From assembly GCF_021531055.1 (NCBI RefSeq), contig NZ_JADYTL010000003.1, forward strand, positions 1-64,000: 64,000 nt of DNA, in the 5' to 3' direction. The translations under genes were made by a program, and so were the position numbers. Source of the stretch: Collinsella tanakaei (GTDB taxonomy: Bacteria > Actinomycetota > Coriobacteriia > Coriobacteriales > Coriobacteriaceae). The notes under the pieces were generated by a model. The model did not search any database. It was not told the DNA's origin and saw nothing but the letters and a program-made list of their open reading frames with translations. This document shows, piece by piece, positions 47,551 through 59,738 of this stretch; within the stretch, counting starts at the first letter, position 1, and the number at the start of each line of letters is the position of its first letter.

Positions 47551-49128
47551 CTACCGCCGCAAATCTTCTTCAGGCGTGGAGATCGGCGCAATGCCGAATT
47601 GCTTGACCAGGTAGTCAAGAACGCCGGGCGACACGAATGCGGGCAGCGTGGGACCGAGCTTGATGTCGCGAATCCCCAGGTACAGCAGCGTCAGCAGGAT
47701 GCAGACGGCCTTCTGCTCGTACCAGGACAGGATGATGGAGAGCGGAAGCTCGTTCACCTCGCATTCGAGCGCCTCTGCAAGCACTATGGCGACGCGGATC
47801 GCACTGTACGCATCGTTGCACTGCCCCATATCCATCAGGCGGGGCAAGCCGGCAACGGTCCCCAGGTCCAGATCGTTGAAGCGGTACTTTCCACACGCCA
47901 GCGTGAGCACCACGCTGTCGGCCGGCGTCCGCTCCACCAGCTCCGTGTAGTAGTTACGCCCCGGGCGCGCGCCGTCGCACCCGCCGATCAGGTAGAAGTG
48001 CCCGATCTTGCCCGACTTGACGGCATCCACCACGTGATCGGCCACCGCCAGCACGGTGCCGTGGGCAAAGCCGGTCGTCACCGTGGTTCCGCCGTTGATA
48101 CCGGTGAACTGCCGATCTTCCGCATATCCTCCCAGCTCGAGCGCGCGGCGGATGACGGGAGCATAGTCGCGCTCCTCGCCGATATGCACCAAGCCGGGAT
48201 AGGCAACGACCTCGGTGGTGAACACGCGGTCGGCATAGCTCGCGCGCGGCGGCATCAGGCAGTTGGTGGTGAAGAGCACAGGCGCCGGGATATCGACGAA
48301 CTCCTTCTGCTGGTTTTGCCAAGCGGTGCCAAAGTTGCCCTTGAGATGCGGGTACTTCTTGAGCTCGGGATACCCGTGCGCCGGCAGCATCTCGCCGTGC
48401 GTGTACACGTTCACACCCGTACCCGCCGTCTGCTCGAGCAGCTCGTGGAGGACGAACAGGTCGTGTCCCGACACGACGATGAACGGACCCTTTTCGACTA
48501 GCAGCGGCACCGTGGTGGGCACCGGCGTGCCATAGGCGCCCGTATTGGCAAGGTCGAGCATCTCCATGCACACGAGGTTCTTCTCGCCCACCTCGAGTGC
48601 GAGCGACAGCAGCTCGTCGGCGTTCAGATCCTCGCCAAGCGCGCGAAGGGCACGCAGAAAGAAACGGTCAAGCTCGTCCTTCTCGTAGCCAAGCACCCAG
48701 GCATGATAGGCATAGGCTGCCATGCCGCGGATGCCGAACAGGACGAGCGACTTCAGTGAACGGATATCCTCGTCGGCCGTCCAGATCCCGGCCATGTCGT
48801 AGTCGGCGCCCGCAGCCCCTACGTCGCCCGCAGCCGCCGCGTCGCGCTCGGCGTGGACGCAGTCGATCAGCTCGCGCAGCACCTCCGCGTCAAAGTTGAC
48901 GTTCGTCACCGTCGCGAACAGGCTCTCCAGCACGAGCCGAGCCCTGCCCGGACGCTCCCGCGCACCGTCCGCAGCGCGCGCCAAGCCGATAAGCGCGCCG
49001 GTCAGCTCGTCTTGCAGGCGAGCGACGTCCGCCGTCTTACCGCACACGCCCGCGCGACCGACACAGGCGCTACAACCGGCGGTCTGCTCGCACTGAAAGC
49101 AGAACATCGGGGTTTCCCTTGTCTTCAT
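47551..49128 (-). CDS. hcp: Hybrid cluster protein (hydroxylamine reductase)
   Basis: 525 residues from the ATG at 49128 (AAGGAGGG upstream). The N-terminal Fe-S cluster motif is MFCFQCEQTAGCSACVGRAG with a following VCGK. Hybrid cluster ligands are recognisable in VVSGHDLF, TTNCLMPP, GGCDGARPGRNYYTEL and LACGKYRFND. The protein reduces hydroxylamine or nitric oxide and takes part in nitrosative stress defence. It is divergent from a Crp/Fnr regulator, an arrangement known for HcpR and hcp. The dyad between them is listed separately. Confidence 0.95.
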   Translation of the reverse strand: MKTRETPMFCFQCEQTAGCSACVGRAGVCGKTADVARLQDELTGALIGLARAADGARERPGRARLVLESLFATVTNVNFDAEVLRELIDCVHAERDAAAAGDVGAAGADYDMAGIWTADEDIRSLKSLVLFGIRGMAAYAYHAWVLGYEKDELDRFFLRALRALGEDLNADELLSLALEVGEKNLVCMEMLDLANTGAYGTPVPTTVPLLVEKGPFIVVSGHDLFVLHELLEQTAGTGVNVYTHGEMLPAHGYPELKKYPHLKGNFGTAWQNQQKEFVDIPAPVLFTTNCLMPPRASYADRVFTTEVVAYPGLVHIGEERDYAPVIRRALELGGYAEDRQFTGINGGTTVTTGFAHGTVLAVADHVVDAVKSGKIGHFYLIGGCDGARPGRNYYTELVERTPADSVVLTLACGKYRFNDLDLGTVAGLPRLMDMGQCNDAYSAIRVAIVLAEALECEVNELPLSIILSWYEQKAVCILLTLLYLGIRDIKLGPTLPAFVSPGVLDYLVKQFGIAPISTPEEDLRR

Positions 49129-49214
49129 TGAGCCCTCCTTGCTCTTGGCAGGCGGTCGCGTAGCTTTTGCGACCGCACGTCGCCTAGGTATATCGCCGAG
49201 GGGTCCGTGGGTAT

Positions 49215-49228
49215 GTTGTTGTGACAAC
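49215..49228. promoter_or_regulatory. Candidate HcpR operator
   Basis: GTTGT-TGTG-ACAAC is a perfect 5-bp dyad, 16 bases before the regulator start and about 87 before hcp. Crp/Fnr regulators bind such dyads. At this position it could repress the regulator gene and act on hcp. Confidence 0.55.
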
Positions 49229-49243
49229 GGATTGGAGAAACCG

Positions 49244-49897
49244 ATGAATTGCGCATCCCTTACACATCACGCGATCTTCGACGGCATCACCGCCGACGAA
49301 ATCGAGGCGATGCTCCCTTGCCTTGAAGCACACACGCGGACGTACGACAAGGGGGAGGCCATCCTGCGCGCCGGAGACGAGGTGCGCTATCTGGGGCTTG
49401 TCCTTGAGGGAAGCGTCAATATCGTCGCCACGTACTACTGGGGCGCCAGCGACATCTTCGTCCACGTGGCTCCGGGGCAGATCTTCGGCGAGGCATACGC
49501 CGTCAGCCCGCAGCAGAAAATGCTGGTCGATGCCGTGGCGGCGCAGCCCACCACCGTGCTGTTCCTCAACGCGGAAAAGCTCCTCACCGTCTGCGGGCGC
49601 TCGTGCGCACAGCACCATCGCCTCATCCAGAACCTCGTGCGGATCTCGGCGCTCAAGAACCTCGCCCTCTCGCGCCGCATCATGCACACGGCTGCAAAGA
49701 CGATCCGCGGGCGCGTCATGTCCTACCTGTCTGAGCAGGCGATCGAGCACCGATCCAGCAGCTTTGCGATCCCTTTTTCGCGCCAGGAACTCGCCAACTA
49801 CCTGGGCGTCGACCGCAGCGCCCTGTCGGCGGAGCTCTCGCGCATGCGGCGCGACGGCCTGATCGCGTTTCGCAAGAACCACTTTGAGCTGCTGTAA
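49244..49897 (+). CDS. Crp/Fnr-family regulator (HcpR-like)
   Basis: 217 residues from the ATG at 49244 (TTGGAGAAA upstream). The cyclic-nucleotide-binding-like beta roll covers about residues 20-130 (GQIFGEAYAVS) and the helix-turn-helix lies at the C-terminus (FSRQELANYLGVDRSALSAELSRM). No Fnr-type cysteine cluster is apparent; heme or NO sensing as in HcpR is plausible. Position divergent to hcp supports control of nitrosative stress. Confidence 0.88.
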   Translation: MNCASLTHHAIFDGITADEIEAMLPCLEAHTRTYDKGEAILRAGDEVRYLGLVLEGSVNIVATYYWGASDIFVHVAPGQIFGEAYAVSPQQKMLVDAVAAQPTTVLFLNAEKLLTVCGRSCAQHHRLIQNLVRISALKNLALSRRIMHTAAKTIRGRVMSYLSEQAIEHRSSSFAIPFSRQELANYLGVDRSALSAELSRMRRDGLIAFRKNHFELL

Positions 49898-50734: not shown

Positions 50735-51225
50735 CTAGATCGTCGGCTGATTTCGCCGCGGCCCCGATAGCGTATCATGGGCCAACGCCACTTTCCCTAT
50801 ATTGCAGTGAGGCAAGCGCACCTCAACGGCAGCAACTGCACCGGTAGGTAGATAATCTGTAGCAACTGAAATAAGCTCCGCATCAACCTCAATGGGAACA
50901 GAACCATCTATCGTCGCGACATAGCGCTTAGTGGTAATAGGGTTTTCCCAGTTCAGGATATTCCCAGACTCGGTCAACGCTAGCACTTGAGTAAAGTTGT
51001 AGTCATATACAGCAAGCCGGGCAACCGGAACTATTTCTTCGCGAATAGAGTCGTCAGTAATCGCCGTATGGTCTTCTGTCAGCAAGTTCTTAAGAATAAA
51101 AACGCTGATACTGACAGAAGCAGGCATAAAATCAAGATAGTAAAGACGCTGATCGGATTCTTCTTTATTGCTTTTTCAGTTTCACGAAAACGCCTCCAGA
51201 TACAGCAATATGTCAAATCAATCAT
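50735..51225 (-). pseudogene. DUF4230 membrane-anchored protein, frameshifted
   Basis: The first part, from the ATG at 51225, encodes a cytoplasmic start (ETEKAIKKNP) and a membrane helix (ISVFTILILCLLLSVSAFLFL) and then hits TGA at 51079. The adjoining frame continues with LTEDHTAITDDSIREEI and the DUF4230 core (ARLAVYDYNFTQVLAL, YVATIDGSVPIEVDAEL, VEVRLPHCNIG). The shift probably lies in the T-run around 51098-51103. The C-terminus is shorter than in other DUF4230 proteins. The ATG overlaps the stop of the GIY-YIG-like gene (ATGATTGA), so it is the last gene of the operon. Confidence 0.7.
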
Positions 51226-52036
51226 TGCCTTCAAGCCAGCCCGTCTTCTCCGCATTATACGAACTGTCGGCATCGAGCGCCGTGATGAGGGAAGCTTCGA
51301 GCGACTCGAGCTTGCCGGCAGCACATGGATACAGGAACACATACACGTGCTGTCCGTACTTCACATCGGCGTACACATCGACATTGCCCTTGCCGATGAT
51401 ATCGTCATGGATGCTCTTGAACATATCATCCGACTTGCCGACATAGATACCTTTGAATTTGTGGTAGTTCCCCTTCTTCACAGCGGAAGGATAGGTCACT
51501 ATGGCATAGCAGCCATAATAGGCGAAGATCCCCTCGCCGTCCTGAACGGAAAGCCCGCTTTGCATCCTCCATGTTTTCATGAAGTCCTCGACAGAGAGCT
51601 TGTTTCCCGCTCCATCGAGCAACGCTCGCCGAGCCTCGGTTCGGGCTTTTTGCTGAGCGCGTTCATCGATGGCACCGCGCACGGCGTCCCCAACCGCTTT
51701 TCCTCGTTGGACAACCATGTCGCCCGCGCCTTTCGCAGCGCGCACCACGCTATCACCGGCTTCGTTGACGGCATCGGGCGCCTTATCGCGAACGACCGCT
51801 GCGACACGATTGGCAACCGGAGCGACATTGGGAATCATGTTGACCATCTGACGAGCGAGCGGCGTGAACTTTGTTGCCTTCTCAAACACGGCGGCGAATT
51901 TCCCCTTGTTCGCCATGTTCGCAACGGCTTCGACGATGTCGATCACCGCTTGCGCTGCATCGCGGTAGTCATTTGCCTCCCGCGCGGTCGAGTAGTTCGA
52001 TTGTGCAGCGGTAAAATCGCTCGGCTTCCGTCCCAC
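51218..52036 (-). CDS. GIY-YIG-like protein with amphipathic helical N-terminus
   Basis: 272 residues. Residues 20-150 are helical with repeated amphipathic stretches (AVVRDKAPDAVNEAG, AAKGAGDMVVQRGKAVGDAV). Residues 165-265 resemble the GIY-YIG nuclease core: GCYAIV as the GIY strand, KGIYVGKSDDMF as the YVG strand, an H at IHDDI, and a glutamate in LESLEASLITAL followed by YN. The catalytic arginine after the YVG strand appears to be Lys or missing (MFKSIHDD). I do not know a described protein with this combination. It lies 53 bases after the 440-residue gene and overlaps the DUF4230 gene. Confidence 0.65.
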   Translation of the reverse strand: MGRKPSDFTAAQSNYSTAREANDYRDAAQAVIDIVEAVANMANKGKFAAVFEKATKFTPLARQMVNMIPNVAPVANRVAAVVRDKAPDAVNEAGDSVVRAAKGAGDMVVQRGKAVGDAVRGAIDERAQQKARTEARRALLDGAGNKLSVEDFMKTWRMQSGLSVQDGEGIFAYYGCYAIVTYPSAVKKGNYHKFKGIYVGKSDDMFKSIHDDIIGKGNVDVYADVKYGQHVYVFLYPCAAGKLESLEASLITALDADSSYNAEKTGWLEGND

Positions 52037-52089
52037 CGTGACCCCTCCGAATCTGTCGACAGGCCGATTAACTCACTCTCGCCGAAGGC

Positions 52090-53412
52090 CTACTTCTTCC
52101 TTTTCCAAGGCAGCGCCTCGGCGATCTTGCCAAGGTCGACGCTTCCCAAGGCTTCGGCAATCTGCTGCCCACCGGCAACGGCACCCGATGCAGCGGCCGC
52201 AAAGCCCTCGCCCATCGCATCCCCCAGCTTGCCGGCGCCGTCCATAACGACACCGCCCAACTGGTTCGCCCCGTCCATGGCAGCTCCGCCCAAATCGCCC
52301 GCGCCTTTTGCGATATCCTTCGCTACATCGGCCGCTGCTTCGCCGGCGAGAGCTCCCCAATTACGGGCACGCTCGATTTCATGCTCATCGATTTCGATAT
52401 CGAGATACTCCGCGAACCGAGAGAGCCTGCTGGCGACAGTCGTTGCCGAACTAAGCGCACTGTCAACCGCGAACGGATGCAGCAGCTTCTGCTCACGAAG
52501 CCGAGCGGCGGCATCGTCGATGCTCTCCCGGAAAACGACGATCCCGTCCTTGATCTTGTGCAACCTGAGCTTGCGAGCCTCCGTGATGCCCAATCGATGC
52601 TGCTCCAACACCTCCGGAAGCTCAGCATATGCACGCTCGAGTTCGAGTACCGAGAATCTATCGCGCGTCTGAACGGCGCGCGCGATGACCGTCAGCCAGG
52701 CGTCTACCTCTGAGCCAGCCGGCTTGAGCAGATCGTCGATCTCCTCGGCACTCTTTGCAGCGACAAGCTTATCCGACAAACCCTTGAGCTTCAGCAATGC
52801 ATATCCCAAAGCCTGTGTCGTCGTCTTCGCGCAAGGGGACAGCTTCGACCATGCCGTCTCGTTGAGTACCCCCGTTTTCTTCCAAATCGCTTCGGCCTCG
52901 TCGATTTCCAGCGCGACTCCGATAAGATCCGATACGGAACGATCCTTTTGGTCCTGGAGCAGCTCGTCGACCTTCTTGTCGATAGAGGCGAGATAGTCGG
53001 TGATTTCCTGAATCGCCTGCTCGAGCGCAGCCTGCGCCATAACGCCCGCAACCCCCGTTGCCATGGCAGGAGAAAAGAGCTGGCTTGGAGTCGTGAACTC
53101 CAGCCACTTGACGATTCGACCGTTCGCACCTTGTGCGACACCCTTCTGAAGAGCACCTGCCTTCCCATATTGCTTGAGAAGCTGACTTGATTCCTTCGTC
53201 AGCTTGACCCATCGCCCAGATCCCTGAGCAAGCTCTCCCGCCGCCTGCGCTGCATTGGCACCGACTTTCAGAGCCTTCGTGGTGAACTCGCGAGATGTGA
53301 TGCCCCGTTCATCGAGCCATTGTTTGATCTCGCCCGGCTCGCCCAGAAAGAGCAGACCCGATTCGTCCTTGATGACCGATATCGCTTGCGTTGAAGTATC
53401 GGGACGGCTCAT
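52090..53412 (-). CDS. Helical protein with glycine-zipper C-terminus
   Basis: 440 residues from the ATG at 53412 (GGAGCG upstream). No known domain is recognised. The N-terminal 90 residues contain EPGEIKQWLDERGITSREF. The segment 100-145 is alanine-rich (MATGVAGVMAQAALEQAIQ) and followed by long helices with coiled-coil character. Residues 370-430 are built of small residues with Gly every fourth position (AKGAGDLGGAAMDGANQLGG), like a glycine zipper, and the protein ends KRKK. It may associate with membranes without a classical anchor. The KGAGD helices recall those of the next gene product. Confidence 0.7.
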   Translation of the reverse strand: MSRPDTSTQAISVIKDESGLLFLGEPGEIKQWLDERGITSREFTTKALKVGANAAQAAGELAQGSGRWVKLTKESSQLLKQYGKAGALQKGVAQGANGRIVKWLEFTTPSQLFSPAMATGVAGVMAQAALEQAIQEITDYLASIDKKVDELLQDQKDRSVSDLIGVALEIDEAEAIWKKTGVLNETAWSKLSPCAKTTTQALGYALLKLKGLSDKLVAAKSAEEIDDLLKPAGSEVDAWLTVIARAVQTRDRFSVLELERAYAELPEVLEQHRLGITEARKLRLHKIKDGIVVFRESIDDAAARLREQKLLHPFAVDSALSSATTVASRLSRFAEYLDIEIDEHEIERARNWGALAGEAAADVAKDIAKGAGDLGGAAMDGANQLGGVVMDGAGKLGDAMGEGFAAAASGAVAGGQQIAEALGSVDLGKIAEALPWKRKK

Positions 53413-53527
53413 TCGACGCTCCAAACTCGTAGAAGGATGATTCTTCCGATCCGCTTAAGTCTACCGCAGGTGCAGATAGGAGTACCGTGCGGAGAACGCA
53501 TATCAAGGTCGTTCGGCCACGCGCAAC

Positions 53528-53557
53528 CCCGCCCGCATCATCCGATCGACGCGGGCG
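53528..53557. repeat. GC-rich hairpin between GYF and 440-residue genes
   Basis: CCGCCCG and CGGGCGG arms enclose a 16-base loop in the 164-base gap. A T-rich run follows only on the plus strand, so for the minus-strand operon it is at best a partial stop or processing site. Confidence 0.45.
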
Positions 53558-53576
53558 GAGCTTTTCTTCCTTTGAG

Positions 53577-53927
53577 CTACCCCTCCGGCACGGGCGGCGG
53601 AGTTAGCGCCACGAGCCGTAGCACTTCCGGCACATCCTCGGCGAGCTTCCAGTCGGACATACCGGGTTTCCAGACGTAGGTCTCCTTGGTCACGCGCTTT
53701 GCAGCAATCAGGCGCGAGAGCCCGGCGAGGGAAAGCGGCCTGGTCGCCGAACCGTCAAGAACCGCATACCAAACCGGCTGCTCGCCGGGCAGCATGGCAT
53801 TATCGGCGCCCGGCGTCACCGTGCTCTGGAGTCCGATATTCATCGAGTTCGCCATCTGGGTTGCCACGGCCATGCTCAAACCGAACTCCACCAGACGGTC
53901 GATAGAGTAGAAGCTGTTCTCGTCCAT
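53577..53927 (-). CDS. Small GYF_2-domain protein
   Basis: 116 residues from the ATG at 53927 (GGAGAGAGG upstream). Residues 50-108 form a GYF_2 (DUF4339) domain: VWYAVLDGSATRPLSLAGL, then TYVWKPGMSDWKLAEDVPEV. GYF domains bind proline-rich peptides. The first 45 residues are a short helical segment. It starts 10 bases after the SPFH gene, which ends in the same domain and has a proline-rich stretch, so the two probably interact. Confidence 0.85.
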   Translation of the reverse strand: MDENSFYSIDRLVEFGLSMAVATQMANSMNIGLQSTVTPGADNAMLPGEQPVWYAVLDGSATRPLSLAGLSRLIAAKRVTKETYVWKPGMSDWKLAEDVPEVLRLVALTPPPVPEG

Positions 53928-53937
53928 ACCTCTCTCC

Positions 53938-55323
53938 TTACGCAGTCGGCGGGATAGGCGGCATGTCGGCGGGCGTGCTGCCACCGAAAACGGAAGCGAG
54001 CTCATCCACGTCTCCCGCGCGGCGCCATTCGGCCATGCCGGGTTTCCATACAAGACTATCGGCACCAAACGTGCCTGCCGACAGCATCTGAGACAGCACC
54101 GGAATGGCAAACGGACCGGTAGCGGCGCCGTTCACCGCAACGTGATAGCCAACCTGCGGAACCGGAGGAGGCACGACACCCGGCGCAGATGTAGTACCAG
54201 CCTGCCCAAGCCCTCCCATCATGCCGTTCATCATGCCCGCGACGTTTTGACCCACAGCGCCTCCGACGGCCATGCCGGCCATCATCGCGGCAGGATCGAA
54301 TCCACCAGCGCCACCGGCACCACCCATCTCGGTTGCACCGTTCGCGCCCATCTGGCCGAGCGCTTGAGCACCTGCAATGCCAACTTCAGCCTGCTTCTCC
54401 ACCTGGAACGCGGAGAAGTTCGTGCTCTCCGTGGCCAAGCGCTGCATGCGCTGCGCCTCTTCGCGCTGAATGCGCAGGGTTTCCTCGAGGTTCTCGGCAT
54501 TGATTCGCTGCTGATCATGCAGGTTCTTGATGTTCACATTGGTTTGCGCCTGGACGGTCCGCTGCTCGACATCACGCGTGACGGACATAAGCTGACGGTA
54601 TCCCTCACTCGTCTTATCGATTTCGAGCGCCGAGATATCGATGCCCGATACCTCGATACCGAAGTTATCACTCATGCGCTCGACGACTTGCGGCGCCACC
54701 GCGTCATGGATCTGCGAGATGCCGCGCTCGATTTGCACAACAGGGATACCGAGGTCGGAAGGAGCATTCGCGACCGCTGCCTTAATGTAACGGCAGATCG
54801 CATCGCGAACCTGAAGCTTGAACCGATCAAGGTCGAATTCATCCAGACGGTGCAGCTTGATGAACTGGCGGTAATCCTTGATGCGGAACGTGAGCGTGCC
54901 ACGAACCGCTACCGGCACACCGAAATCGAGGAAGCGTGGGTCGTAAACATCGAAGAACGGCACGCCGAACCGCGCCTGGATGACATGGGCGAGGTTGATG
55001 AAGTAAACCTCCGCCTGGAACGGCGTGCCGCCCTCATACGCAAGCCCGACGACGCTGGCGAGCACGGGCAGGTTCGCGGTTTTCAGGATCTCGTCGTACG
55101 GACCCTCGATGAAGTCCTCGCACGTACCGTCCTTTTGGTGGTACACGAACACCGCAACCGACCCATCGCGCACGCGCAGGGAGGAGCCCCAGCGAATCGC
55201 ATTCTCGCGACCCAGCGCATTGGCCTGCGAGCCCGCAGGACGCCATTTCCAGATCAGGTAATCCGGTTCATCGCAGCGGATTTGGTCCATAAATCCGCCT
55301 GTAGACTTGTTGAAGATGCTCAT
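53938..55323 (-). CDS. SPFH/band 7 protein (YdjI-like) with C-terminal GYF_2 domain
   Basis: 461 residues from the ATG at 55323 (AAGGAG upstream). Residues 15-60 (DEPDYLIWKWRP) and the SPFH domain to about 230 match the YdjI group; then a coiled coil (VNIKNLHDQQRINAENLEETLRI, split by me) to about 310, a Gly/Met-rich stretch (AAMMAGMAVGGAVGQNVAG), a proline-rich linker (VVPPPVPQ) and a GYF_2 domain from about 395. In Bacillus subtilis YdjI works with YdjG, YdjH and PspA at the membrane. Zinc-ribbon membrane proteins upstream here could play the YdjG/YdjH part. Confidence 0.88.
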   Translation of the reverse strand: MSIFNKSTGGFMDQIRCDEPDYLIWKWRPAGSQANALGRENAIRWGSSLRVRDGSVAVFVYHQKDGTCEDFIEGPYDEILKTANLPVLASVVGLAYEGGTPFQAEVYFINLAHVIQARFGVPFFDVYDPRFLDFGVPVAVRGTLTFRIKDYRQFIKLHRLDEFDLDRFKLQVRDAICRYIKAAVANAPSDLGIPVVQIERGISQIHDAVAPQVVERMSDNFGIEVSGIDISALEIDKTSEGYRQLMSVTRDVEQRTVQAQTNVNIKNLHDQQRINAENLEETLRIQREEAQRMQRLATESTNFSAFQVEKQAEVGIAGAQALGQMGANGATEMGGAGGAGGFDPAAMMAGMAVGGAVGQNVAGMMNGMMGGLGQAGTTSAPGVVPPPVPQVGYHVAVNGAATGPFAIPVLSQMLSAGTFGADSLVWKPGMAEWRRAGDVDELASVFGGSTPADMPPIPPTA

Positions 55324-55404
55324 GTTATTGCTCCTTGTTATGGGTGTCTGCCCATTCACGGCGCATCGATATCGACGCGAAGCCCTATTGAAAAGCGAAG
55401 CGCG

Positions 55405-56640
55405 CTACTTTTGGAATCGAGAATGGTAGTAAACCGCAATGGGAACAGTCGGGTAATAAAAAGTTCCTTCGACAAACCCTCTTTTACCTCCGACCGTAAC
55501 ATCTTCCACGATTCCTTCCCTAACGTATAGCGCCGTTATGATGTTGATGTCATTGAGGGGGATGAGCTCCACATTGGTAAACCCTGCTTCCTCGAAGCGA
55601 TGTTTCACCGTTATTCTGTCCTTTTCATCTGGCCAACCACTGGAAATCGGCATGATGATTTTTCCCTCCGCCATCGCTTTGGCGATTTTGTCCCTCTCTT
55701 CTCTCAGCTCCTCTGCCTCTTTTTCGTCTCGTTTTGCCTGAGACGCAAACCAGGGCAGCTCTATTGCCGCAACAACCGCACCCAAGTAGATAAACGATGC
55801 ATTTGCGTGTGCATAATCCACCATTTTCCCCAAGGCAAACGCCGTAAGCACGAGGGCCACGGAGCATACGATTCCATATATGCTTCGCCCCCGGTTAACG
55901 GATGCGGGTATTGCAGCCAACAAGATCACAATGGCAATGATCTGCAAGATACTCGAGTTTTTGCCTTCGATAGCAGAATACGCTGCAATTGTAAGGAGAA
56001 CAATTGCGACATAGAGACCGATTGTTCGGAGAAATGCTTTTCTGGCAGCTACAGACTGAAACCTTTTCTCGCGATCGTCAATCGCATCCCGTATTGAATG
56101 ATAAAGGCTCTCGAGCTTCTGATTATCACTATCGGATAGAAGCAACCGTCCTTTTTGATAAGCCTGCTCACCCTTGGCAAGCCAGGCGTCAATGAGCCTA
56201 TTTGTTCGAATATCATCGATGCTTTTCGCGTTCTCAAGCGCGCTATTGATATTCGATTGGGCAAGCATCATAAAGTCGAATATATCGCCCTTGCTATTTG
56301 GAATAACAAAGTTCTTGATCAATACCTGCTGGCTAATCGCAATGGCGGCAGAGGAGGAATCCGAATGCGCAACTTCGACAAGAGCCTTGGTAAAGTCACT
56401 CAATGATGCCGATCGCTCAGAATCCCTCAATTCATAGCCGCACGCCGGACAATATGCTGTGAAAGAACCGAGCATTTCGCCGCATGCAGGACATTTCACA
56501 ACCGAGCCTTGATACGTTTCCCTAGGACTATCACTGCCGGCGCCGGTGATCTCAACAGGAGACCCGCACTTCACGCAGAACTTTGCCTGGCAATCTATCT
56601 CGCTTCCGCAGGCCGAACAAATATGCATATCGTCTCTCAT
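55405..56640 (-). CDS. Zinc-ribbon membrane protein with PASTA-like C-terminal module
   Basis: 411 residues. Two zinc ribbons open the protein: CSACGSEIDCQAKFCVKCG at residues 8-26 and CPACGEMLGSFTAYCPACG near 50-68. A helical region follows (about 85-200), then four membrane segments between about 205 and 300, a charged helix, and a C-terminal module from about 335 (RFEEAGFTNVELIPLND, then VTVGGKRGFVEGTFYY and VYYHS). The same kind of module occurs twice in the product of 57548. DNA here is clearly more AT-rich than at either end of the window. I infer an envelope-located sensor or scaffold with cytoplasmic zinc ribbons. Confidence 0.8.
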   Translation of the reverse strand: MRDDMHICSACGSEIDCQAKFCVKCGSPVEITGAGSDSPRETYQGSVVKCPACGEMLGSFTAYCPACGYELRDSERSASLSDFTKALVEVAHSDSSSAAIAISQQVLIKNFVIPNSKGDIFDFMMLAQSNINSALENAKSIDDIRTNRLIDAWLAKGEQAYQKGRLLLSDSDNQKLESLYHSIRDAIDDREKRFQSVAARKAFLRTIGLYVAIVLLTIAAYSAIEGKNSSILQIIAIVILLAAIPASVNRGRSIYGIVCSVALVLTAFALGKMVDYAHANASFIYLGAVVAAIELPWFASQAKRDEKEAEELREERDKIAKAMAEGKIIMPISSGWPDEKDRITVKHRFEEAGFTNVELIPLNDINIITALYVREGIVEDVTVGGKRGFVEGTFYYPTVPIAVYYHSRFQK

Positions 56641-56648
56641 AAATCGCC

Positions 56649-56843
56649 TCAGCCGTTTTCAATCTGCCGCGCAATCATGCCGCCGGTAGGCACCATGCTG
56701 TAAATGACCATTCCATTTTCAGCATGCTTCCTGCACGATATAGGGCCCACGATTAGAAGAACCACCGCTATGAATACAACCAGGATTGAATAGTAGGAGT
56801 ATTTTAAGATATACCTTAATATCCAGTGAATAATATCTTTCAT
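56649..56843 (-). CDS. 64-residue single-pass membrane protein
   Basis: The ATG at 56843 is preceded by AGGAG at ideal distance. One hydrophobic segment (YYSILVVFIAVVLLIVGPI, residues about 18-36) is followed by a short polar tail. No relatives are recognised. It ends 8 bases before the zinc-ribbon gene and belongs to the island operon. Confidence 0.7.
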   Translation of the reverse strand: MKDIIHWILRYILKYSYYSILVVFIAVVLLIVGPISCRKHAENGMVIYSMVPTGGMIARQIENG

Positions 56844-56964
56844 ACTATACTCCTGCTTTCTATCCTTTACCACCGAACTGCTTACAACACCGGAAGGGGA
56901 AATCGACGTACGGTCATTCGCCACCTTTTGAAAGCGCTACATTCGTAGATACTGGCAACGAGGC

Positions 56965-57534
56965 TCATTCCCGCGTCATAACGAGAAGAACGTCCCGTTT
57001 TTTTCTTAGATACAGCAGCTTCGCTCGAATAATCAGCTCTTCGTCATCCATCGCCTGGCAAGCATGCTCGATCAGCTGATGGACCTTCTCAAGCCATGCC
57101 GTAGATAATTCGGCGCGCCTTTCATCATCGGAACCCTTTTTGAATGCCTCGACCTCGACGCGAGGCAGGATTGCCAAAGCATTCTCTAAAGCCTCATCGG
57201 CATCATCGGGAACGGCAAGACGATGAATGAGCTCGACCTTCATATCTGTCGACTCAACATCCTTAAGCCGATTATCCAAGTCATCTACCGAAAAGAACTC
57301 AGAAGCAGTCTCATGTGAACACTCCTGACAGCTTGACTGGAAATCATAGCCCTCCGAAGAGCATGTTTGCATGCCGTTAGGATCGCTGCCCTCGCCGAGC
57401 GTTGCTTCCCCATCGGAAACTCCCAACGCGTCCGCAGATACGCCGGCACCTTCCATTTCGACCGGGTTCCCGCAGTTCCAACAAAAGTGTGCCCCGTCTT
57501 TTACTTTCGCTCCGCATTCAGTGCAAAACGGCAT
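56965..57534 (-). CDS. Soluble zinc-ribbon protein
   Basis: 189 residues from the ATG at 57534 (GGAGGAC upstream). An N-terminal zinc ribbon, CTECGAKVKDGAHFCWNCG (residues 4-22), is followed by a low-complexity acidic linker with a third cysteine pair (CQEC) and a helical domain of about 110 residues. No membrane segment. It starts 13 bases after the DUF4839 gene. The partner is probably one of the membrane proteins of the operon. Confidence 0.8.
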   Translation of the reverse strand: MPFCTECGAKVKDGAHFCWNCGNPVEMEGAGVSADALGVSDGEATLGEGSDPNGMQTCSSEGYDFQSSCQECSHETASEFFSVDDLDNRLKDVESTDMKVELIHRLAVPDDADEALENALAILPRVEVEAFKKGSDDERRAELSTAWLEKVHQLIEHACQAMDDEELIIRAKLLYLRKKRDVLLVMTRE

Positions 57535-57547
57535 ATCGTCCTCCACC

Positions 57548-59443
57548 TCACCGATCCGACAGAGATACCGGGTCGAGCTCAACCCACTGGTTTTTGTAAT
57601 CCCATTGATCAATAACCGCAGTGACTGTCACTTCCGATCCGTTACGGAGCCCTTCGCCCGTATAGCCCATGTCGAACCTATTGACATCGGTAAAGTGAAA
57701 CATCGGACCGACCGTCGTTTGTTTCTCCACATTCCCCGCCAAAATGAGCACATCGTAGCGTGTCTTATAGGTATCATGATTCATGATATTTCCGATGTAG
57801 GCATTGAACCGGATTGTCCTGCCTGCGTATTTGGAAACGAACTCCGACGCATCATCGGTTGATTTTGACATCAGCTTTCTAAAATCTTTCGAGTTTTTAG
57901 TCGTGATGATTTCGGTATCTTGCTTCTGACTCGACTCATTTTGAACGGAATCCGTTGAAGAGGCTGCATCTTCCGCACCAGACTCTACCGTTACCTCTAT
58001 CGTTACTTCGTCATCCGAATCGAACGAGTCGTCCGCTGAAAAACTGGAGTTCGCAAACCATCCCCATCCGATTGAAACACGGCTTACGCCAAGCGCCTCA
58101 TCAGATGAATCCGCTGCAACTTCCACAATGGATATATTCGTAAAGCCAGCCTTTTCGAAAGCTTCTTTAACCTCTTTCCGACTTTTCCCGATTAGTTTTT
58201 TAGCATCATCGGGTGGATACAGCTTTCCAAGTCGGTGATACACGATTACAACCTTGTCGTCCGTATAGAAATCCTCGTCCTGAGAAAATGCCTTTAATCC
58301 GTTAACGGAAACCGATTTGACTGTCCCTTCCCGATCCTTGTCGGCAACATCAAGATCTTCGTTTGCCGTCAACTCGATTCGGTCAAATCCAGCCCTACGA
58401 AATGCCGCTTCGATTTCCTTGTAAGTTTTGCCATCCATGTCGGATGATGCAAAAGGCGCCCTCACATGTTCAATTTCTTGAACATCTACTTGTTCAGAGG
58501 AGCAATGCGCAGTGAAGCGGTACTTGGATTCGCCTTTGCTGCTGAATGAAACCATTCCGTCTACCGACGAATCCTCTTCGTTTTCGAGTTTAAGACGATG
58601 GTCGCCTCGCTCGAGATTCACTTCGTATTCCCCTGTTTCGCCATGCTCAAGAGCGGCTACATACTCCCCGTCGATATAGACATCTAAATCGTAAGTATTA
58701 AATAGCCAGTTCTCATCGCACTCGATTGATATGGTAATCGGTTCGCCCTTCTCGGCTTTTTTCTCATCTTCTTGACCGCCATCCTCGCTCTTTCGTTCTG
58801 CGGCATTGCTATCGTCGTTGACCGAATTGATATCCTGCCTCGCAGGAATCGAAGACATGCTATGGGCGCCCGACGAATCCGACGCCTCCTCACGGGGGAA
58901 CAGGACAATGGCGCCGACCAAGACGATTAAAACCGCGCCAAAAAGAACTGTCATCCCCGCAACACGAGAAGTATTTCCAGTGTGCTCAAGGCGTTTACTG
59001 GTTTTAATCCCAGAATCACCTTGATCCTCATCGCCGCATACGAAAGAGGAATCGCACTGCTCGCTCATATCTTCATTGGACGATTCCTCAAACTCAATCG
59101 CAAGATCGAGGTCTTCAGATTCAGCATCCCCTGCGCCTTTTATTTCTGCGAGTCTTCTTTCCAATGAAGCGATTTCCGAATTAACCTCAGCGAGTTCCTG
59201 CTTAGCAAAACGTATTCTATCGTCCTGCTCTTTCTTCCTCGCCTCATCAGCAACATGCGATTCCTTAACGTGCTTGGCGACGTTTTTCCCTGCTGTCGTC
59301 ACCTGTGAACCGAGACCCAAGAAGCCCTGCTTAAGGTTGTCAAAGCTCTTCTTTGCCGTCTCTTCATCTATGCCCGACATTTCAACAAACTCTTGTTTGG
59401 CATTATCGAGCTGAGAACGCAGGTTATCAAAAAGCCCCATCAT
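57548..59443 (-). CDS. Membrane protein with coiled coil, PASTA-like repeats and DUF4839
   Basis: 631 residues, first gene of the island operon. Residues 1-110 are helical and coiled coil (FAKQELAEVNSEIASLERRL). A single membrane helix lies near 162-183 (VLFGAVLIVLVGAIVLF). Outside follow a beta domain (DVYIDGEYVAALEHGETGEY), two PASTA-like modules (AFRRAGFDRIEL to VIVYHR, and AFEKAGFTNISI to VTIEV), and the DUF4839 domain from about 525 (SKYAGRTIRFNAYIGNI, VTAVIDQWDYKNQWVELDP). PASTA modules in kinases bind cell-wall fragments; a comparable sensing role is inference. The divergent XRE gene begins 80 bases upstream. Confidence 0.82.
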   Translation of the reverse strand: MMGLFDNLRSQLDNAKQEFVEMSGIDEETAKKSFDNLKQGFLGLGSQVTTAGKNVAKHVKESHVADEARKKEQDDRIRFAKQELAEVNSEIASLERRLAEIKGAGDAESEDLDLAIEFEESSNEDMSEQCDSSFVCGDEDQGDSGIKTSKRLEHTGNTSRVAGMTVLFGAVLIVLVGAIVLFPREEASDSSGAHSMSSIPARQDINSVNDDSNAAERKSEDGGQEDEKKAEKGEPITISIECDENWLFNTYDLDVYIDGEYVAALEHGETGEYEVNLERGDHRLKLENEEDSSVDGMVSFSSKGESKYRFTAHCSSEQVDVQEIEHVRAPFASSDMDGKTYKEIEAAFRRAGFDRIELTANEDLDVADKDREGTVKSVSVNGLKAFSQDEDFYTDDKVVIVYHRLGKLYPPDDAKKLIGKSRKEVKEAFEKAGFTNISIVEVAADSSDEALGVSRVSIGWGWFANSSFSADDSFDSDDEVTIEVTVESGAEDAASSTDSVQNESSQKQDTEIITTKNSKDFRKLMSKSTDDASEFVSKYAGRTIRFNAYIGNIMNHDTYKTRYDVLILAGNVEKQTTVGPMFHFTDVNRFDMGYTGEGLRNGSEVTVTAVIDQWDYKNQWVELDPVSLSDR

Positions 59444-59522
59444 TCCCCCAGAGCAAGGTCGCAGTCCCTACATGCTCTCTACAGAGAGCACTTCCTCATC
59501 TTACCGCACGTATGCTTGCAGC

Positions 59523-59738
59523 ATGGACAACGTGCGCGAAAAGCGAGCCCTCGGCTCCAGCATCCAAGCCGCTCGCGCCGAACGCGGCATCTCGCAGCGG
59601 CAACTCGCCCTCATGACAGGGACGAGCCGCTCCTATCTCTGGAAGATCGAGATGGGAGCGGCTGACGTCGGCATCGATGTCCTTATCCGCATCGCCAAGG
59701 CACTTGATGTGCCCGTGCGCGAACTTATCGATTTCTAG
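59523..59738 (+). CDS. Small XRE-family regulator
   Basis: 71 residues, almost entirely one helix-turn-helix: IQAARAERGISQRQLALMTG followed by SRSYLWKIEMGAADVGIDVL. The ATG at 59523 is chosen because the product then begins just before the domain; an in-frame start 51 bases upstream is possible, and no strong ribosome site marks either. It diverges from the nine-gene operon with an 80-base gap, the classical place for its repressor or switch. Confidence 0.82.
   Translation: MDNVREKRALGSSIQAARAERGISQRQLALMTGTSRSYLWKIEMGAADVGIDVLIRIAKALDVPVRELIDF

What the first reader, a model, noticed from the sequence alone, without database searches (positions are those of the whole stretch)
50735..59738. 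Nine-gene SPFH/GYF/zinc-ribbon/GIY-YIG operon: candidate undescribed membrane-stress or defence system
Nine minus-strand genes with short gaps, headed by a divergent XRE regulator, combine: coiled-coil/PASTA-like/DUF4839 membrane protein, two zinc-ribbon proteins, a 64-residue membrane peptide, an SPFH-GYF protein, a free GYF protein, a glycine-zipper protein, a GIY-YIG-like protein and DUF4230. Established: B. subtilis ydjG-ydjH-ydjI (zinc ribbon, membrane, SPFH) works with PspA in envelope stress. Here there is no PspA, but two other helical, possibly membrane-binding proteins stand in that place. The right half is more AT-rich than the flanks, as expected for an acquired island. The GIY-YIG fold would add a possible nuclease, hence the defence option.
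Basis: partly seen in the sequence, partly recalled or inferred. Interest (0 to 1): 0.78.

Follow-up and report, generated by a model that had tools for sequence, protein, structure and literature searches.

The report
Swappable membrane-protection gene cassette
In a gut bacterium related to Collinsella, a small DNA-binding protein and one matching 16-letter DNA palindrome mark a chromosomal slot whose contents, here a set of genes predicted to build a scaffold at the cell membrane, are swapped for other membrane-protection or candidate anti-virus genes in close relatives.

Summary
The nine genes are there, with corrections. A core (zinc-ribbon protein, SPFH-GYF protein, often a free GYF protein and a PASTA/DUF4839 surface protein) recurs in Coriobacteriia, Clostridia and Spirochaetes. 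The 440-residue gene, the GIY-YIG-like gene and DUF4230 are separate modules. The GIY-YIG fold is supported, but the catalytic arginine is absent in 14 of 14 homologues, so the nuclease argument fails. The ninth gene is a sub-threshold DUF4230 remnant. PspA is absent from the operon but present elsewhere in the genome.

New here: in Coriobacteriales relatives the divergent XRE gene heads a syntenic variable slot. Twenty-eight such loci carry SPFH cassettes (8), PDC-S30 candidate defence genes (10), DUF4230 plus the GIY-YIG-like gene (3), dynamin plus HerA-like ATPase (2), DUF4230 without these (2), DUF4839 without these (2) or nothing (1). A 16-bp palindrome lies between XRE and cargo in 27 of 28, exact in 18. 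The window's genome has one exact copy; of 18 genomes (of 297) that hold it, 17 have it beside this XRE.

Most likely this is an XRE-repressed sensor/effector slot, here carrying a membrane-scaffold cassette against envelope or phage-inflicted damage. Architecture is well supported; function is inferred. New variant of a known kind.

The parts
59523..59738 (+). XRE-family regulator, 71 aa (the longest ORF starts at 59472)
   Evidence: Start inferred from homologues that begin MDNxxEKR. HTH repressor/regulator families in PHROGs, best E 3.8e-11. 27 of 116 relatives match at E<=1e-15, 17 of them (own genome included) at 70% identity or more.
59474..59489 (.). Palindrome GCTCTCTACAGAGAGC, predicted operator of the XRE; 33 nt before the XRE start and 30 nt before g1
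   Evidence: The only exact site in the 2.23 Mb genome.
57548..59443 (-). g1: N-terminal helical region, one hydrophobic segment (residues 158-188), beta region, PASTA x2, DUF4839 (predicted surface sensor)
   Evidence: The homologue in L030 has a lipoprotein-type signal (VGCSS).
56965..57534 (-). g2: small zinc-ribbon protein, no hydrophobic segment
   Evidence: matches my ZnR family model at 8e-15.
56649..56843 (-). g3: 64-residue membrane peptide
   Evidence: Hydrophobic stretch; no counterpart was searched for systematically.
55405..56640 (-). g4: double zinc ribbon, four hydrophobic segments, PASTA-like C-terminus (YdjG-like)
   Evidence: shares phrog_29396 with g1.
53938..55323 (-). g5: SPFH (Band_7_1) protein with C-terminal GYF_2 and proline-rich tail PPIPP
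53577..53927 (-). g6: free GYF protein with proline-rich tail PPPVP
52090..53412 (-). g7: 440-aa helical protein, no known family; accessory module of its own
51218..52036 (-). g8: helical N-terminal half plus degenerate GIY-YIG-fold domain
50735..51127 (-). g9: probable DUF4230 remnant
   Evidence: Sub-threshold PF14014.

Best explanation
The locus is an XRE-repressed exchange slot for membrane-directed modules. A 71-residue XRE protein binds the 16-bp palindrome between itself and the first cargo gene and keeps both silent (inferred from sequence; binding not shown). The slot often holds an outward-facing membrane-anchored protein (DUF4230, or PASTA/DUF4839 as here) followed by an effector module. 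In this genome the effector is a scaffold. The zinc-ribbon/TM protein (g4, like YdjG) anchors the SPFH-GYF protein at the membrane. SPFH subunits form rings or caps, and the GYF domains of g5 and g6 bind the proline-rich tails at the ends of g5 and g6, cross-linking the assembly. g7 and g8 are add-ons from other modules with helical, possibly membrane-binding parts; g8 acts as a binding domain, not a nuclease. The cassette is de-repressed by envelope damage, including damage from phage, and stabilises the membrane. Shown: architecture, recurrence of the core, palindrome beside XRE, syntenic exchange, loss of the catalytic Arg. Inferred: repression, sensing, assembly, benefit.
For: Recurrence of the core: 21 distinct SPFH-GYF loci in Coriobacteriia, Clostridia and Spirochaetes, with a ZnR gene close upstream in 15 of 21 (3 of the other 6 are cut by a contig end) and a separate GYF gene in 13 of 21. 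Regulator and palindrome: of 22 loci with this XRE (11 reached through SPFH, g7 or g8 or being the window, 11 through the XRE search), 12 have the exact palindrome, 7 one mismatch, 2 two, 1 none. Used as a blind probe on 297 genomes of the order, the exact palindrome occurs in 18, of which 17 have it beside this XRE (in G116 a 67% match over 58 residues); six of these loci (G244, G186, G180, G141, G196, G116) were new and all carry a cargo family seen before. The reversed control pattern occurs in 3 of 297; expected exact sites in this genome 0.009 at GC 0.60, found 1. Exchange: on a tree of a flanking membrane protein (20 of 28 loci), cargo type needs 9 changes (least 4, shuffled mean 10.1); the closest flank relative (92% identical) carries PDC-S30 instead. 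G021 has three left-flank genes (Crp-type, HCP-type, f_323) at 97-98% and SPFH at 96%, but a different head gene (DUF4230) and tail gene (PH+SHOCT). DUF4230 is the first cargo gene in 12 of 28 loci, DUF4839 in 6 of 28, both families together in 0 of 28, g9 not counted. PP.P tails in 16 of 18 SPFH-GYF and 8 of 11 GYF proteins checked.
Against: No expression, binding or phenotype data. The XRE slot is not a property of the core: this XRE is beside 8 of 13 Coriobacteriales SPFH-GYF loci and 0 of 8 from Clostridia or Spirochaetes (several of these are cut by contig ends). L134, an XRE locus with an intact SPFH core, lacks the palindrome. g7 and g8 have no demonstrated link to the core beyond position (g8 follows the GYF gene in only two other loci, L030 and L042). 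The GYF-tail interaction was not modelled. The slot of two loci holds a dynamin-family GTPase with a HerA-like ATPase, which need not act at the membrane, and in L156 PDC-S30 lies 4.7 kb from XRE with other genes between. The one sigma-70-like pattern found does not overlap the palindrome. The enrichment of PspA in genomes with the core is matched by that in genomes with g7, so it is probably phylogeny.
Confidence: 0.55

Rival explanations
1. The slot is a small anti-phage hotspot and the SPFH cassette is a dedicated defence system: it senses phage attack at the membrane and either delays lysis or kills the cell. Envelope stress is only the trigger.
For: Slot-mates are candidate defence genes: PDC-S30 in 10 of 28 XRE loci (E 3e-51 to 5e-92) and dynamin plus HerA-like ATPase in 2 of 28 (Dynamin_N 3.5e-18; HerA 1e-15 and LeoA 1.6e-7). 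g7 homologues lie near restriction or Avs2-type genes in 8 of 10 loci read besides the window. Cargo type is about as scattered on the flank tree as shuffled labels. B. subtilis DynA delays phage lysis (PMC8844932, abstract read).
Against: None of the ten window proteins scanned matches a PADLOC model well (best E 0.0012). The nuclease-fold domain is degenerate. PDC-S30 is itself, by its name, a candidate (my reading of the name); the PADLOC paper's main text does not mention PDC. The Clostridiales copy in L056 sits between genes that look like housekeeping ones (murA- and aro-type by eye). No background rate of restriction genes was measured for g7.
Confidence: 0.3
2. Plain envelope-stress housekeeping: a YdjGHI-type scaffold that works with the genome's PspA encoded elsewhere, with no special role in phage defence; cargo exchange reflects niche-specific envelope stresses.
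For: Band_7_1 family also found in B. subtilis, zinc-ribbon partner, PspA present on another contig next to a weak TPM match (E 0.029, below cut-off). 9 of 11 genomes with a strong SPFH-GYF match have PspA vs 95 of 286 others (p 0.0017). In B. subtilis YdjI, YdjG and YdjH are needed to bring PspA to the membrane (PMC8581546, passages read).
Against: The same PspA enrichment is seen for g7 genomes (8 of 9, p 0.0012), so phylogeny may explain it. G198 has the core and no PspA over cut-off. The replacement of cargo by candidate defence genes is not expected of housekeeping.
Confidence: 0.3
3. A chance run: unrelated genes accumulated in a degenerate island without joint function.
For: g7, g8 and DUF4230 move independently; g9 is a remnant; the SPFH gene is broken in one relative (L032) and partial in another (L033).
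Against: The core recurs in the same order in three phyla; one regulator and palindrome are kept over differing cargo; g1, g4, g5 and g6 are open reading frames without breaks here.
Confidence: 0.07
4. g8 is an active GIY-YIG nuclease effector released or activated by the membrane scaffold.
For: GIY-YIG fold by structure comparison (UvrC 1yd6 Z 7.6, R.Eco29kI 3mx1 Z 6.3); first tyrosine kept in 14 of 14, second in 13 of 14, glutamate in 11 of 14, asparagine in 14 of 14.
Against: The position of the essential arginine is S (11), A (2) or G (1) in 14 of 14 and the following His is variable. No Pfam GIY-YIG hit.
Confidence: 0.05

Closest known systems
Bacillus subtilis pspA-ydjGHI envelope-stress operon
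   Same: Zinc-ribbon membrane protein beside an SPFH protein; Band_7_1 family found in B. subtilis too; membrane scaffold role plausible.
   Different: No PspA and no TPM (YdjH) gene in the operon; GYF domain where the B. subtilis band-7 protein carries a C-terminal zinc ribbon (Ravi et al., PMC11237479, passages); extra free GYF, PASTA/DUF4839, g7 and g8; XRE at the head, where B. subtilis uses sigma-W (PMC8581546, passages).
Band-7 operons of Ravi et al. 2024 (PMC11237479)
   Same: Band-7 proteins with zinc ribbons, SHOCT-type partners and PspA, thought to assemble sub-membrane complexes.
   Different: The main text has 0 occurrences of GYF and AIM24; the SPFH-GYF/free-GYF pair, the XRE/palindrome slot and the exchange with PDC-S30 or dynamin are not in the passages I read.
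Bacterial dynamin-like protein DynA (lysis delay, PMC8844932, abstract read)
   Same: Dynamin-family cargo occupies the same slot in two relatives; membrane integrity against phage is the suggested common purpose.
   Different: The window has no dynamin; the function of the slot's dynamins is untested and their LeoA match is weak (1.6e-7 and 3.6e-4).
PDC-S30 (PADLOC phage-defence candidate)
   Same: The same XRE heads PDC-S30 genes in 10 of 28 loci.
   Different: No PDC-S30 gene in the window; I found no text on its validation (one paper looked at).

Membership tests
B. subtilis PspA-YdjGHI type system | SPFH protein of the Band_7_1 family | tested here: met
   PF13421 E 4.3e-21; the family also rings in B. 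subtilis. That YdjI is the B. subtilis member is recalled.
B. subtilis PspA-YdjGHI type system | Adjacent zinc-ribbon membrane protein (YdjG-like) | tested here: met
   g4: DZR 1.6e-8 and four hydrophobic segments; ZnR close upstream in 15 of 21 SPFH-GYF loci. YdjG itself was not aligned.
B. subtilis PspA-YdjGHI type system | PspA gene in the operon | tested here: not met
   No PF04012 hit in the ten proteins scanned; PspA lies on another contig.
B. subtilis PspA-YdjGHI type system | TPM-domain protein (YdjH) in the operon | tested here: not met
   No PF04536 hit in the ten proteins; a weak match next to the distant PspA, E 0.029, below cut-off.
B. subtilis PspA-YdjGHI type system | Induction by envelope stress | not testable with these tools
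   No expression data.
GIY-YIG nuclease | GIY-YIG fold | tested here: met
   Model (mean pLDDT 67; 84-93 in blocks over residues 171-260). Five of the top nine VIA rows are titled GIY-YIG: UvrC 1yd6 Z 7.6 (86 residues, rmsd 2.5) and 1yd4 7.5, R.Eco29kI 3mx1 6.3, 3nic 6.2, 3mx4 6.2. 2lwf (7.7) and PD-T4-3 (6.2) I recall as GIY-YIG. All Z are under 8, and Foldseek gave nothing at E<=0.001.
GIY-YIG nuclease | Catalytic arginine after the YIG motif | tested here: not met
   S/A/G at that position in 14 of 14 homologues; the position is assigned by eye against the UvrC motif recalled from memory.
Known PADLOC defence system | Match of the window's proteins to PADLOC models | tested here: not met
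   Ten proteins scanned, best E 0.0012.
XRE-controlled exchange slot (defined here) | Divergent XRE plus palindrome GCTCTCTNNAGAGAGC before the first cargo gene | tested here: met
   Window exact site at 59474-59489.

The most novel reading that the evidence does not exclude
A general, regulator-marked immunity slot. One XRE repressor and its single chromosomal operator accept interchangeable sensor (DUF4230 or PASTA/DUF4839) plus effector (SPFH-GYF scaffold, PDC-S30, dynamin/HerA, degenerate GIY-YIG) cassettes. Together these form a membrane-guard branch of phage defence in which a cross-linked SPFH-GYF cap physically delays lysis or seals phage-made lesions.
Probability: 0.25. Interest if true: 0.85.

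Novelty: new variant of a known kind. Interest (0 to 1): 0.62.

Why it matters
If right, it links flotillin-like SPFH scaffolds, dynamins and a candidate defence gene through one regulator and one DNA site. That makes the role of bacterial SPFH proteins in envelope and phage damage directly testable. The 16-bp site is also a precise tool: it finds further cassettes without prior knowledge of their genes, as the six blind finds show. In addition it gives DUF4230, DUF4839 and PDC-S30 a shared regulatory context.

Tried and rejected
Rejected: (1) the nuclease-based argument for defence. (2) The nine genes as one inseparable system: g7, g8 and DUF4230 have lives of their own. (3) Phage or plasmid carriage of the core: 12 plasmid records match, none over 80% of the query, the ten listed at 24-34% identity. 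The one phage record, MT835670.1 (63%), is an unverified faecal scaffold with what look by eye like ABC-transporter and histidine-kinase-type genes, probably bacterial. IMG/VR gave one contig (56%), not examined further, and none for g7. (4) PspA co-occurrence as proof of partnership: p 0.0017 for core genomes, but p 0.0012 for g7 genomes; within the window's genus PspA is in 4 of 5 genomes with the XRE slot vs 3 of 38 without (p 0.0013); not corrected for relatedness. (5) g7 fold: mean pLDDT 51, no Foldseek match at E<=0.001; left unknown. (6) A solved relative of the SPFH part: the one match, 7z3c, covers only the GYF region.

Limits: g8 matched 49 of 297 genomes, but I read the surroundings of 13 of these plus L042 from the named collection. 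g7 matched 14 of 297; 10 loci besides the window were read, two of them (L040, L148) with g7 fragments. From the XRE search only places at 70% identity or more were read, plus G096. Duplicate records of one locus (L041, L043, L045, L046 or L133, L048, L054) were counted once; L047 and L056 are near-identical and both counted. Restriction-type neighbours of g7 were picked by eye and no background was measured. The HMMs were seeded from some of the loci they were used on. The tail check covered 18 of 21 SPFH-GYF and 11 of 13 GYF genes. In one search one row (L161) used a start a few codons too far downstream; its site was still found. L153 is cut by a contig end. ORFs were called by a simple script, so small or GC-shadowed genes may be missed.


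Full report
What is there. The window is G000:C10:1-64000 of a 2.23 Mb genome in 16 contigs. The genes left of the operon are 88-98% identical to those of G021 and the MerR-type gene on the right 78%; G021's contig of 271,788 bases has the length and match of the record Collinsella tanakaei ET30, so the organism is a Collinsella relative. The operon was confirmed with starts adjusted to homologues. Pfam supports DUF4839 and PASTA in g1, zinc ribbons in g2 and g4, Band_7_1 plus GYF_2 in g5 and GYF_2 in g6; DUF4230 in g9 is below its cut-off, and g7 and g8 match nothing above cut-off. GC drops to 0.49 over the right half against about 0.63 outside.

The core travels; the rest does not. g7 matched 8 and SPFH-GYF 13 of 118 relatives, with 3 genomes in common; in two of those three the two genes are on different contigs. 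The SPFH-GYF family was then found in Collinsella, Olsenella, Ruminococcus/Clostridiales and Spirochaetes/Treponema (16 loci) and in further Coriobacteriales (39 of 297 genomes at E<=0.001, 11 of them strong, the rest probably other SPFH proteins). In 21 distinct loci a zinc-ribbon gene lies close upstream in 15 (in L052 with genes between), a separate GYF gene follows in 13, and a DUF4839 or PASTA-linked protein is near in 7. g8 full-length homologues (14 loci) have an intact DUF4230 gene within about 1 kb in 7, and the SPFH core in 3 including the window. g7 homologues lie near type I, Mrr, GmrSD, AlwI-type or Avs2-type genes in 8 of 10 loci other than the window (chosen by eye, no background measured). 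In L035 and L138 g7 and g8 occur together without SPFH.

The regulator marks a slot. Eleven further loci fetched by XRE homology (70% identity or more) have the window's MerR-type right-flank gene in 10 of 11 and the small membrane protein in 10 of 11, on the far side of XRE from the cargo; the membrane protein f_323 of the window's left flank lies beyond the cargo in 5 of 11. Twenty-eight loci with this XRE were read: 22 in hand (the window and 10 reached through SPFH, g7 or g8, 11 through XRE) and six found by the palindrome. Cargo: SPFH core 8 (window, L029, L030, L031, L032, L042, L133, L134); PDC-S30 10 (L152, L153, L156, L158, L159, L162, L181, L183, L185, L187; in L156 4.7 kb away); DUF4230 with g8 3 (L036, L139, L141); Dynamin_N-type protein with HerA-like ATPase 2 (L157, L160); DUF4230 without these 2 (L154, L155); DUF4839 without these 2 (L182, L184); empty 1 (L161). 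The tail after GYF also varies: PH plus SHOCT in L029, LOR in L135, AIM24 further on in L032 and L133, a 510-residue protein in L031. L135 starts near a contig end and shows no XRE; it is not one of the 28. DUF4230 is first in 12 of 28 and DUF4839 in 6 of 28, with no locus having both (g9 not counted), as expected for alternative surface parts, although relatedness was not controlled. The slot belongs to Coriobacteriales: XRE accompanies 8 of 13 SPFH-GYF loci there and 0 of 8 from Clostridia and Spirochaetes.

The operator. Aligning the XRE-cargo gap showed a palindrome, GCTCTCTNNAGAGAGC, 33-34 nt from the XRE start in the rows I counted, whatever the cargo. Among 22 loci: 12 exact, 7 with one mismatch, 2 with two, 1 without (L134, whose XRE is the most distant of these, 52%). 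In the window it is at 59474-59489, the only exact site in the genome, with 0.009 expected. Searching 297 genomes with it alone gave 18 with a site, against 3 of 297 for the reversed control. Seventeen of the 18 have this XRE next to it (G116 a more distant, shorter match); G170 does not. Six of the 17 loci were new to me and carry cargo of the families listed above. In L161, where the slot is empty, a g1-like gene 3 kb away has its own site with one mismatch, as expected if g1 belongs to this regulon.

Exchange. A tree of the flanking membrane protein (20 rows; the other 8 loci gave no match) needs 9 changes of cargo type; the least possible is 4 and shuffled labels need 10.1 on average, as few in 43 of 200. 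The closest flank relative of the window (L153, 92% identical) carries PDC-S30. L030, L031 and L155 group with short branches but carry SPFH, SPFH and DUF4230 cargo. G021 keeps the SPFH gene (96%) while head and tail genes differ. I read this as repeated replacement of cargo, perhaps by recombination in conserved flanks; no integrase was looked for, and no tRNA was found in the window.

Mechanism. g1 has one membrane segment with PASTA/DUF4839 domains after it, and its relative in L030 has a lipoprotein-type signal, so these domains should face outward. SPFH proteins assemble into rings and domes (PMC12624060, start of abstract in the listing). In B. subtilis YdjI needs the membrane proteins YdjG and YdjH to reach the membrane, and PspA needs YdjI (PMC8581546, passages). 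That GYF domains bind proline-rich peptides is recalled knowledge. The ends of g5 (PPIPP) and g6 (PPPVP) fit, with a PP.P-type tail in 16 of 18 SPFH-GYF and 8 of 11 free GYF proteins checked, so homotypic cross-linking is the simplest model. g8 has a GIY-YIG fold but no catalytic arginine in 14 of 14. Whole-chain Foldseek gave nothing at E<=0.001; the assignment rests on VIA-align 2, where five of the top nine rows are titled GIY-YIG, all with Z under 8. g7 is helical, unknown.

Envelope stress or phage? For envelope stress: the Band_7_1/zinc-ribbon pair, lipid- or membrane-type tails (PH, LOR, AIM24), and PspA in the same genome (C11). For phage: slot-mates PDC-S30 and dynamin/HerA, g7's neighbourhoods, and the lysis delay reported for B. 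subtilis DynA (PMC8844932, abstract read). The two readings meet in membrane protection. PspA co-occurrence does not decide it.

Known or new. Full-text searches of the held open-access library found no paper with SPFH, GYF and PspA together, one paper on other conflict systems with SPFH, GYF, zinc ribbon and operon, none with Collinsella and SPFH, and two listed papers naming DUF4230, neither naming DUF4839. The PSP survey (PMC11237479, passages) describes the B. subtilis ydj operon and band-7 partners but not GYF. The core is therefore a new variant of the band-7/zinc-ribbon kind, and the operator-marked slot was not met in these searches.

Noticed in passing
L157:6604-12927, L160:6049-11993: A dynamin-type protein (923 and 838 aa) paired with an 1182 or 1141 aa HerA/FtsK-like ATPase and a third gene of 182 aa, behind the same XRE; possibly an undescribed dynamin-based system.
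   Followed up: partly
G000:C11:164901-165569 (L132): PspA gene with a neighbour that matches the TPM domain weakly (E 0.029): a possible split PspA-YdjH pair away from the SPFH operon.
   Followed up: partly
L161:3130-3145: Second copy of the palindrome (one mismatch) just before a g1-like gene in a genome whose slot is empty.
   Followed up: no
window 57551-59443 and 55408-56640: The PASTA-like/DUF4839 part of g1 and the C-terminus of g4 both match phrog_29396 (8.7e-38 and 1e-8), so phage-encoded relatives of the surface protein seem to exist.
   Followed up: no
window 47551-49897: What looks like a hybrid-cluster-type protein (558 aa) next to a Crp/Fnr-type regulator, on the left flank of the slot; identification by eye.
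   Followed up: no
L031:11428-12960: A 510-residue protein with no Pfam match above cut-off fills the tail position in Collinsella sp. An307; weak LeoB match (2.9e-4).
   Followed up: partly
L188:6041-7467 (G096): A distant XRE (51%) is also divergent from an SPFH/zinc-ribbon gene, without the palindrome nearby: perhaps an older XRE-SPFH association.
   Followed up: partly
L189 (MT835670.1): A GenBank 'Bacteriophage sp.' scaffold that holds a ZnR and SPFH-GYF pair and looks like a bacterial contig.
   Followed up: yes
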